Shown here: piece by piece, positions 30,731-35,730 of the stretch
Position numbering within the stretch: position 1 is the stretch's first letter
Layout of the letters: each line of letters begins with the position of its first letter
Origin: Mycolicibacterium tokaiense
GTDB lineage: Bacteria > Actinomycetota > Actinomycetes > Mycobacteriales > Mycobacteriaceae
Length of the DNA: 64,000 nt
Assembly (NCBI RefSeq): GCF_010725885.1
Contig: NZ_AP022600.1
Span: 1,798,001 to 1,862,000 of the forward strand
Direction: 5' to 3'
Position numbers and translations under genes: made by a program
The notes under the pieces: model-generated
The model's input: the letters and a program-made list of their open reading frames with translations, nothing else
Databases searched by the model: none
Told to the model about the DNA's origin: nothing

Positions 30731-32575
30731 ATGACCAGCAGCGTCGCCACCGCACGCCGGCAGTTCGATCAGGGCATGGCGCTGCTCGAGGTCGATCCCG
30801 CCGAGGCGCGCAGCCGGTTCGGTGAGGCCACGCAGATCGACCCCACCATGGCCGACGCGTGGCTGGGGCGCATCGCCGCCGGCGACGACTCCATGACCAC
30901 GCTGCAGCAGCTGCATGCCTACGGCAGCCGCCTGCACCGGGAGACCAATCGGCTCGGTGCGGGGTTGTCGGCGCACATCAAGGCCGGACCGTATCTCGCC
31001 ATCACCGTCACCGAGGCCTCGCATGCCGGGCTGGCGCTGGCTTCTGCTTTGATCGACGACGGCCAGTTCGAGAAAGCCGATGGGCTGCTGCAGGATTCGG
31101 CACTGCTGGACACCTGGGAGAACCACCAGTGGCAGCAGTACCTGCGGGCGTACCTGATGCTCTCGACGCAGCGGTGGCCCGACGTCATCTCGGTGGCCGC
31201 CACGGTGCTGCCGCCCCAGGCCATCATCATGGCCGCGGTGACCGCTGCCACCAACACCCTGGCCGCGCACGCGGCGGCACACCTGGGGCAGGCCCGGGTG
31301 GCACTGGACTGGGCCGACCGGGTGGAGTTGCGAGCGGCCAACACCCCGTCGGAGAACCGGCGCCGGGATCTGACGTCGGCCATGGTGGCCGCCATCGACC
31401 CCGCCGACTTCCCCTTGATCGCCGCAGACCTGTCCTACGTCCGGGGCATGGCGCACCGCCAGCTGGGCGAGGAGGACCGGGCACAGATCTTGTTGTCGAA
31501 GGCGACCATCAACGGCGCTCTCATGCCCGCCGCGCAGCAGGCCCTGGCGGATCCGTCGCTGCAGCTGGTGATCACCGACGAGGACACCATCAACAGCCGC
31601 ACCAACAAGTGGGACGCCAGCACCGCGCAGTCCCAGGCCGACCGCGAGGAGCTGGAGAACGAGGGCAGGCGCACCGAGCTGCTGGCCGAGGGGCGCGAGC
31701 TGCTGAACAACCAGGTGGGTCTGGCCGACGTGAAGCGAGCCGTGGCCGAGCTGGAGGACCAGATCGAGGTGCGCGCACTACGATTGGCGCACGGGCTGCC
31801 GGTGAACAACCAGACCAACCACATGCTCTTGGTCGGTCCCCCCGGCACCGGTAAGACCACCACCGCCGAAGCGCTGGGCAAGATCTACGCCGGTCTGGGC
31901 ATCGTGCGACATCCCGAGATCATCGAGGTCAAGCGCGCGGACTTCTGCGGCGAACACATCGGCTCATCCGGGCCGAAGACCAACGAGCTGATCAGCAGAT
32001 CGCTGGGCCGCATCTTGTTCATGGACGAGTTCTACTCCCTGGTGGAACGCCACCACGACGGCCGGCCCGACATGATCGGGATGGAAGCGGTGAATCAGCT
32101 ACTGGTGGCGTTGGAGGTGCACCGGTTCGACTTCTGCTTCATCGGCGCCGGATACGAGAAGGAAGTCGACGAATTCCTCACGGTGAACCCGGGTTTGGCG
32201 GGCCGCTTCAACCGCAAGCTGCGGTTCGAGTCCTACAGTCCCGACGAGCTCGTGGAGATCGCGTTGCGCTACGGCCGACCGCGCGCCACCGTCATCGAGC
32301 CGCCCGCGCAGGAAGCCTTCAACGCGGGGTGCCGGGTGCTGCGTGCCTATCGCGCGGCCGACGGTGAGCACGGCATCGACGTGATGCAGAACGGCCGCTT
32401 TGCCCGCAATGTGGTGGAACGGGCTGAGCGACTACGTGATTCACGAGTGGCCGCGCAGAACCGCACCGACCGCGGGTCGGTCACCATCGAGGACCTCGAG
32501 ACCATCCGGACGCCCGATATCGTCGCGGCCATGCGTGACGCCTGCGCCGAGAAGCACGTGCCGATCGAGCTCTGA
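30731..32575 (+). CDS. eccA2: ESX-2 cytosolic AAA+ ATPase EccA
   Basis: 614-aa protein of the CbxX/CfqX AAA+ family. The N-terminal TPR-like helical domain (about 1-290) is followed by the AAA+ domain with Walker A GPPGTGKTTT (about 369), Walker B ILFMDEFYSL (about 428), sensor and arginine finger (NPGLAGRFNRK, about 488). EccA releases EspG from PE/PPE pairs and recycles it. The last codons (HVPIEL, stop TGA) form one copy of a 19-bp direct repeat whose twin lies at 35712-35730, so an insertion occurred exactly at the stop codon. Confidence 0.95.
   Translation: MTSSVATARRQFDQGMALLEVDPAEARSRFGEATQIDPTMADAWLGRIAAGDDSMTTLQQLHAYGSRLHRETNRLGAGLSAHIKAGPYLAITVTEASHAGLALASALIDDGQFEKADGLLQDSALLDTWENHQWQQYLRAYLMLSTQRWPDVISVAATVLPPQAIIMAAVTAATNTLAAHAAAHLGQARVALDWADRVELRAANTPSENRRRDLTSAMVAAIDPADFPLIAADLSYVRGMAHRQLGEEDRAQILLSKATINGALMPAAQQALADPSLQLVITDEDTINSRTNKWDASTAQSQADREELENEGRRTELLAEGRELLNNQVGLADVKRAVAELEDQIEVRALRLAHGLPVNNQTNHMLLVGPPGTGKTTTAEALGKIYAGLGIVRHPEIIEVKRADFCGEHIGSSGPKTNELISRSLGRILFMDEFYSLVERHHDGRPDMIGMEAVNQLLVALEVHRFDFCFIGAGYEKEVDEFLTVNPGLAGRFNRKLRFESYSPDELVEIALRYGRPRATVIEPPAQEAFNAGCRVLRAYRAADGEHGIDVMQNGRFARNVVERAERLRDSRVAAQNRTDRGSVTIEDLETIRTPDIVAAMRDACAEKHVPIEL
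32555..32573 (+). repeat. 19-bp direct repeat, left copy (end of eccA)
   Basis: CACGTGCCGATCGAGCTCT, the last codons of eccA plus the first base of its stop. It is identical to 35712-35730. The flanks differ on both sides, so the match is exactly 19 bp. It bounds the adhesin cassette on the left. Confidence 0.85.
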
Positions 32576-32595
32576 CTACTAAAGATCGCGGCGAG

Positions 32596-35409: not shown

Positions 35410-35711
35410 CGCGTTCGCCTTCCCCCCGGCTCAGGCACCCGAGGGGCGCTGAACCACTTCGCTCGGCATGGCCTGCCGGGCGGCGCTCACAGCGCGAGCA
35501 TAGTTTTACCAGACCGTAAATACAGATGTACCGGCTTCGATGGATTGCGGCTGAGGGTGTCGGCGAATGTTGCATGATGTTCCTGACGGCCTGTCGGGCC
35601 TCAGAGTGGCGCTGCAGGAGCAAAAAAGCTGAACCAGCGATCCAAAACCCGCAGCACCAGCAATGAGTCGCTATGTTGCAGTAACCACAGCCTGGCCGGC
35701 GATTGCTTCGC
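35410..35711. other. Non-coding upstream region of the adhesin cassette
   Basis: About 300 bp without a convincing gene. It holds the adhesin RBS (GGGGGGAAGG on the minus strand next to 35410) and a comparatively AT-rich stretch (35500-35535) that probably contains its promoter; a minus-strand TATGCT at about 35497 is a possible -10. A hairpin-like CTGACGGCC...GGCCTCAG lies at 35583-35603. No integrase or transposase fragment is visible. Confidence 0.5.
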
Positions 35712-35730
35712 CACGTGCCGATCGAGCTCT
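35712..35730 (+). repeat. 19-bp direct repeat, right copy
   Basis: CACGTGCCGATCGAGCTCT, identical to the eccA end at 32555-32573. Read in the eccA frame it would continue CTC TAA, so joining the copies restores eccA with a TAA stop overlapping the TAG stop of the convergent EspI-like gene. That is the likely pre-insertion arrangement. Confidence 0.85.

What the first reader, a model, noticed from the sequence alone, without database searches (positions are those of the whole stretch)
32555..35730. Adhesin gene inserted exactly at the eccA stop codon between 19-bp direct repeats
CACGTGCCGATCGAGCTCT occurs at 32555-32573 (last codons of eccA) and 35712-35730. Joining the copies restores eccA with a TAA stop that would overlap the stop of the convergent EspI-like gene. 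The 3.16-kb insert contains only a Calx-beta/VCBS adhesin gene and its promoter region, with no integrase or transposase. A cargo-only element using a gene 3' end as target, or excision between the repeats, would be a new kind of ESX-linked islet.
Basis: partly seen in the sequence, partly recalled or inferred. Interest (0 to 1): 0.82.

Follow-up and report, generated by a model that had tools for sequence, protein, structure and literature searches.

The report
Gene-insertion spot at eccA2 end
In a mycobacterium, a foreign surface-protein gene was slotted between two genes whose stop signals overlap, and the short junction sequence was copied on both sides so that neither gene was harmed; a sister lineage has a different gene at the same point, so this looks like a favoured landing place for new genes and not a new mobile element.

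Summary
The 19-mer lies at 32555-32573 and 35712-35730, the only copies in the 6.33-Mb genome, flush with both edges of a 3,138-bp lower-GC insert. With one mismatch it extends to 22 bp.
The new-islet reading is partly supported. Of 43 distinct eccA2/espI2 junctions, 5 are empty and 38 are filled, with varied contents where scanned: an old variable spot. The sister at this locus, G056, carries a different gene (pentapeptide repeats) at the same point, flanked by a different 10-bp repeat. The next outgroup is empty. Both repeats contain CTAA, the overlapping stops of eccA2 and the convergent ParA-like gene, so the duplication leaves both genes intact.
The two inserts share no end motif, have no terminal inverted repeats and show no mobility gene. 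Five other inserts at the spot lack repeats.
Best explanation: illegitimate, break-repair-type insertion with target duplication, filtered by selection on overlapping stops. The mechanism is inferred. A trans-acting integrase is less likely; one of two viral hits of the 19-mer lies inside an integrase gene, probably by chance.
Separate lead: five ESX-2 deletion types all spare a C-terminal EccA2 piece, under purifying selection where tested.

The parts
30731..32575 (+). eccA2 (ESX-2 AAA ATPase, 614 aa), ending TGA
   Evidence: named EccA/EccA2 in relatives
32555..32573 (+). left 19-bp copy: last six codons of eccA2 plus first stop base
32574..35711 (.). 3,138-bp insert between the copies, GC 0.618, no terminal inverted repeat
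32596..35409 (-). cargo: 937-aa Ig-like/cadherin-like/Calx-beta protein (secretion signal judged by eye)
32605..33714 (-). three near-identical Calx-beta repeats of about 369 nt; the 3'-most is out of frame (approximate outer limits)
35410..35711 (-). 5' region of the cargo gene inside the insert, without a large ORF; promoter not tested
35712..35730 (+). right 19-bp copy (22 bp with one mismatch, to 35733)
35729..35732 (.). CTAA: TAG stop of the convergent gene (minus) overlapping the TAA that eccA2 would have at the intact site
   Evidence: intact order seen at the left edge of the G056 insert
35729..36760 (-). convergent ParA/MinD-like gene (CbiA domain), called espI2 here

Best explanation
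SHOWN: the eccA2/espI2 convergent junction holds different inserts in different species and is empty in others. The window has an adhesin-like gene there between two copies of the junction (19-22 bp); its sister at this locus, G056, has a pentapeptide-repeat gene at the same point between copies of 10 bp; the next outgroups are empty. INFERRED: two separate insertions after the split, each an illegitimate, repair-type event. A staggered break at the junction was filled in on both sides and a passing DNA fragment was joined between, as Ku/LigD end-joining could do, giving duplications of variable length with no recognition sequence and no mobility gene. Because the two stop codons overlap in this lineage (CTAA), an insertion without a duplication covering CTAA would damage a stop, so selection keeps insertions that duplicated it. 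The cargo is not expected to excise at useful rates.
For: 43 distinct junctions: 5 empty, 38 with 126-6129 bp; ten ORFs that I chose from nine of the inserts fall into at least eight unrelated Pfam groups. Locus tree: window and G056 are sisters (100/99), then G167 with a 7-bp gap, then L035 with a 0-bp gap. Different cargo and repeat, same point, both repeats containing CTAA, both genes' stops intact. The 10-bp repeat of G056 is reached by 1 of 500 shuffles, the 19-bp one by none (2 and 0 of 100). No shared end motif and no terminal inverted repeats. Ku is encoded. Precedents: in Streptomyces ambofaciens 5 insertions of 30 bp to 18.8 kb were found at healed double-strand breaks, with fill-in at scars (PMC5869714, passages); 10-18% of variable segments in three species are flanked by repeats, mostly under 30 bp (PMC2884548, passages).
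Against: A 19-22-nt overhang is long for simple end-joining. Five other inserts at the spot, each absent from a compared relative, show no repeat above 6 bp, so duplication is not the rule there; in all, 36 of 38 filled junctions show only 5-8 bp. No donor fragment was found. Two hits on one point could also mean a site-specific enzyme, and one viral copy of the 19-mer lies in an integrase gene. LigD was not searched for. Only two repeat-bearing cases exist.
Confidence: 0.6

Rival explanations
1. Site-specific integration by a tyrosine recombinase acting in trans or since lost; the 19-mer is the att core at the eccA2 3' end and the adhesin is cargo of a minimal element.
For: Insertion leaves the gene 3' end whole, a common habit of integrases (recalled); two insertions at one point; one of two viral contigs with the exact 19-mer has it inside a phage integrase gene.
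Against: Repeats differ between the sisters (19 against 10 bp), insert ends share no motif, no phage record matches the left edge better than E 0.04, in a tail gene, no mobility gene seen in the insert, 10 testable cargo relatives lack edge repeats. The integrase hit is within codons, in an unrelated contig.
Confidence: 0.15
2. Import from a related strain: DNA carrying the eccA2 3' end and the adhesin, circular or linear, recombined at the junction; the original insertion happened elsewhere.
For: [quoted passage not shown] a close adhesin relative exists in Mycobacterium sp. djl-10.
Against: Moves the origin but still needs an earlier insertion with duplication; no other searched genome has a close copy of the adhesin.
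Confidence: 0.12
3. Remnant of a DDE transposon or insertion sequence with target-site duplications.
For: Flush direct repeats at both edges.
Against: No terminal inverted repeat (longest end match 5 bp in the window insert, 6 bp in G056), no transposase seen, lengths 19 and 10 do not fit one family.
Confidence: 0.06
4. The insert is ancestral and the empty relatives lost it by deletion between pre-existing repeats.
For: Repeat-flanked segments can be deleted by slippage (PMC2884548, passages).
Against: Successive outgroups are empty and without repeats, the sister has other cargo, the right copy is an eccA2 end where eccA2 is not.
Confidence: 0.05

Closest known systems
Horizontal-transfer hotspots lacking mobility genes (PMC5635113, passages seen)
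   Same: Turnover of unrelated genes between two conserved genes, no integrase or transposase seen in the window insert
   Different: Single-gene scale, compared across species; recombination in the flanks was not tested
Repeat-flanked variable segments attributed to illegitimate recombination (PMC2884548, passages seen)
   Same: Short direct repeats under 30 bp at the base of a variable segment, empty alleles elsewhere
   Different: There repeats were read as promoting deletion; here the locus tree indicates insertion with duplication of the eccA2 end
DNA insertion at repaired double-strand breaks in Streptomyces (PMC5869714, passages seen)
   Same: Actinobacterium, insertions up to 18.8 kb, fill-in at scars
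   Different: Experimental, endogenous DNA; flanking duplications of 10-22 bp were not mentioned in the passages seen
ESX-2 deletion with a partial eccA2 in the M. marinum group (PMC9241763, passages seen)
   Same: ESX-2 loss leaving part of eccA2
   Different: Here five junction types in other species, with purifying selection measured on one type

Membership tests
Hotspot without mobility genes | Same two conserved flanking genes with varied contents across genomes | tested here: met
   43 distinct junctions, 5 empty, 38 filled; varied Pfam content in ten chosen ORFs of nine inserts
Hotspot without mobility genes | No integrase or transposase in the insert | tested here: met
   Window: one large ORF, adhesin-like; G056: pentapeptide gene. 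The other inserts were scanned only in part
Hotspot without mobility genes | Raised homologous recombination in flanking genes | not tested
   -
Repeat-flanked variable segment | Direct repeats at the segment edges and empty alleles in relatives | tested here: met
Tyrosine-recombinase integrative element | Integrase gene on the element | tested here: not met
   Only the adhesin-like gene is a plausible gene in 32574-35711; overlapping ORFs were not scanned
Tyrosine-recombinase integrative element | Constant core shared by elements at one site | tested here: not met
   19-bp against 10-bp repeats, sharing CTAAC at most
Tyrosine-recombinase integrative element | attP with the same core on a phage or element | tested here: inconclusive
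   Exact 19-mer in 2 viral contigs, both inside coding sequence, one an integrase gene; phage records best E 0.04
Tyrosine-recombinase integrative element | Excised circle | not testable with these tools
   needs reads or PCR
DDE transposon | Terminal inverted repeats | tested here: not met
   longest end match 5 bp (window) and 6 bp (G056)
Integron gene cassette | attC site at the cargo 3' end | not tested
   no attC search made
End-joining insertion with fill-in | Host has Ku | tested here: met
   one Ku gene, E 1.8e-54; LigD not searched
End-joining insertion with fill-in | Variable-length duplications and no shared end sequence | tested here: met
   only two cases

The most novel reading that the evidence does not exclude
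Short gene cassettes without their own recombinase are placed at the eccA2 stop codon by an enzyme acting in trans that cuts with a variable stagger at the overlapping stop pair, so that cargo is swapped while both ESX-linked genes stay whole.
Probability: 0.1. Interest if true: 0.75.

Novelty: new member of a known kind. Interest (0 to 1): 0.42.

Why it matters
Hotspots without mobility genes are common, but how genes enter them is poorly known. Two sister insertions at one point, each with a readable duplication, give a view of the entry step, and the overlapping stop codons suggest a simple selective reason why duplications survive there. If break repair is the route, flanking duplications of varied length should mark some recent single-gene gains across mycobacteria, which is a testable genome-wide prediction.

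Tried and rejected
Rejected: adhesin as a travelling element. Twelve relatives' loci were fetched; in 2 (L200, L205) the gene runs off the stretch, and of the other 10 none has a direct repeat of 12 bp or more at its edges within 1.5 kb on either side (less where the contig ends); two have one 12-mer away from the edges. Rejected: phage origin. No phage tblastn match; no relative of the N-terminal part in viral contigs; no phage match of the right edge region; two exact 19-mer hits in viral contigs, both inside coding sequence: a phage integrase gene (L111, Pfam Phage_integrase) and a polynucleotide-kinase-like gene encoding HVPIEL (L112); best phage match of the left edge E 0.04, in a tail gene. 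Plasmids: only distant Calx-beta and related proteins, espI2 relatives and weak hits to the right edge, best listed E 0.5. Led nowhere: protein searches to see whether djl-10 has eccA2; its contig length is not among the 120 listed full-length eccA2 or the 120 listed short pieces.

Limits: one search looked at 90 loci (L033-L101, L159-L178 and the window); 80 passed the eccA2-end test, 49 had both genes on one contig and 6 of these repeat a locus, leaving 43. They are the nearest by eccA2 or espI2, not a random sample, and L102-L110 (other genera) were not used. In some searches one query (mycP) was cut out of frame and is not used. In the tree L078 has five stops in its espI2 part and a long branch, and five rows have one stop in the eccA2 part. 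misread minus-strand loci and was redone.

Full report
WHAT WAS CHECKED. The 19-mer of the finding lies at 32555-32573 and 35712-35730. It has no other copy in the 6.33-Mb genome at up to two mismatches. With one mismatch the copies extend to 22 bp, TGAC on the left against TAAC on the right. The left copy is the end of eccA2 and its stop. The right copy is a second eccA2 end lying directly against the stop of a convergent ParA/MinD-like gene, called espI2 here. Repeat length alone would be weak: the window holds eight other exact direct repeats of 15-16 bp at 200-8000 bp spacing outside the adhesin, and 339 kb of relatives' loci hold two of 17 bp, two of 19, one of 40 and one of 43. What convinces is that the copies sit at both edges of a segment that relatives lack; 0 of 500 shuffles of the edge region reach 19 bp.

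THE INSERT. The 3,138 bp between the copies have GC 0.618 against 0.682 for the window, below all 122 same-size windows sampled every 500 bp. They hold one large gene on the minus strand, a 937-aa protein with a signal-like N-terminus (by eye) and Big_9, cadherin-like and Calx-beta domains, and about 300 bp of 5' DNA. Three Calx-beta repeats are near-identical (98-100% over the 176-nt part that all three share); the 3'-most differs in length, so the last part of the protein is out of frame with the others. Whether that is biology or sequencing error is open. The nearest protein is from Mycobacterium sp. djl-10, 87% over residues 211-719. No close copy was found in the 297, 396 and 198 genomes (overlapping sets, the window's genome included); the best other matches of the first 347 residues are 52-55% over about 140 residues.

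THE SPOT. Of 90 loci looked at, 49 carry the eccA2 end and espI2 on one contig, 43 of them distinct. Five junctions are empty (0, 7, 15, 18 and 70 bp between the stops). The other 38, the window included, hold 126 to 6129 bp. Ten ORFs that I chose from nine of these inserts match protein kinase (two), acyl-CoA thioesterase, FAD-dependent hydroxylase, TetR, ribbon-helix-helix, PIN, gamma-glutamyltranspeptidase, sigma factor and NmrA-like families. This is a long-used variable spot. Only two of the 38 have a direct repeat of 10 bp or more between the two edges: the window (19) and G056 (10). The other 36 show 5-8 bp, reached by 10 to 100 of 100 shuffles.

THE SISTER. This is a tree of the locus, not of genomes. 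G056 has at this point 1,081 bp with a pentapeptide-repeat gene, flanked by CTAACGCGCG on both sides; 1 of 500 shuffles reaches 10 bp. Its left copy shows the intact order: eccA2 TAA overlapping espI2 TAG as CTAA. So two sister lineages hold different genes at one point, each with a duplication that contains the stop-stop overlap and leaves both genes whole. The simplest account is two insertions; one insertion followed by replacement is not excluded.

HOW IT PROBABLY WORKS. Duplications of 19-22 and 10 bp, no terminal inverted repeats, no shared end motif (6-mers, reached by 125 to 157 of 200 shuffles) and no mobility gene seen argue against a transposase or one integrase. Phage searches gave nothing convincing, with one result to tell: of two viral contigs that hold the exact 19-mer, one has it inside a phage integrase gene and one inside a polynucleotide-kinase-like gene. 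Both lie within codons, and I take them as chance in a very large collection. Mycobacteria repair breaks by Ku/LigD end-joining (recalled; the reference list seen cites mycobacterial Ku and ligase); Ku is present here, LigD was not searched. In Streptomyces ambofaciens, fragments of 30 bp to 18.8 kb were inserted at healed breaks (PMC5869714, passages). A staggered break filled in on both sides around a captured fragment gives what is seen. Selection is a likely filter: where two stops overlap, an insertion without a duplication spoils one of them. Against this reading, five other inserts at the spot that a compared relative lacks (six comparisons) have no repeat above 6 bp, though in those the eccA2 neighbour is another resident gene or spacer and no stop overlap was seen; and 19-22 nt is long for an overhang.

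WHAT IS KNOWN. Half of the hotspots in 80 species lacked evidence of mobile elements and 27% lacked integrases and transposases (PMC5635113, passages). Repeats flank 10-18% of variable segments in three species (PMC2884548, passages). The case belongs to these kinds. The listings of searches, which used ESX-2 and eccA2 terms, showed no paper on this junction.

SIDE LEAD. Fifteen distinct loci have lost most of ESX-2 but keep the eccA2 3' end, in five junction types: an EccC2 segment abutting EccA2 from residue 365, out of frame by coordinates (2 loci); EccC2 to residue 353 joined to EccA2 433, in frame by coordinates (1 locus); EccB2 1-35 joined to EccA2 433-614, in frame (G056); the start of a small gene that lies upstream of eccB2 (matched by eye) joined to EccA2 433, in frame (4 loci); and the first codons of EccB2 joined to EccA2 454, in frame (7 loci). 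Three types thus share one breakpoint in EccA2 with different partners, unexplained. Within the last type, for six of its seven loci, dN/dS is 0.027-0.088 in 15 pairs (full-length eccA2 pairs 0.036 and 0.113 over the same part). If that type is one shared deletion, as its identical junction suggests, the piece evolves as a used protein after ESX-2 loss. A partial eccA2 after ESX-2 deletion is already reported in the M. marinum group (PMC9241763, passages); recurrence across species and selection were not mentioned in the passages seen. A database search with the G056 fusion gave 156 proteins at E 1e-30 or better, 120 of them listed; many lie on short contigs and may be fragments.

VERDICT. Interest is moderate, mainly for the paired sister insertions and the stop-overlap idea.

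Noticed in passing
L159 (G056), L082, L085, L086, L088-L093, L096, L210-L212, L214: Five different internal ESX-2 deletion junctions (15 distinct loci) all spare the eccA2 3' end; four of the five types are in-frame fusions, three share a breakpoint at EccA2 residue 433, and in the seven-locus type dN/dS of the piece is 0.027-0.088 (15 pairs of six loci). An orphan EccA2 C-terminal protein seems to be kept after ESX-2 loss.
   Followed up: partly
window 32605-33714: Three near-identical Calx-beta repeats of about 369 nt, the 3'-most out of frame with the others: recent expansion, with decay, phase variation or sequencing error.
   Followed up: no
P0004, Mycobacterium sp. djl-10 (BCA37_00420): Closest adhesin relative, 534 aa, with an unrelated C-terminal tail; its genome did not turn up among those searched, so its place is unknown.
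   Followed up: partly
L091, L043, L089, L092, L086: Further inserts whose left edge lies between about 15 bp before and 31 bp after the eccA2 stop, e.g. a TetR gene (L091) or a ribbon-helix-helix/PIN pair (L092), placed before an older resident gene that clusters with a Pfam-scanned kinase in four of the five.
   Followed up: partly
H21, Mycobacterium branderi plasmid NZ_AP022607.1 219981-220828: espI2-like gene at 76% DNA identity on an 864-kb plasmid.
   Followed up: no
L111 306-324 (-), viral contig IMGVR_UViG_3300048597_000657: Exact copy of the 19-mer inside the coding sequence of a phage integrase gene; taken as chance.
   Followed up: partly
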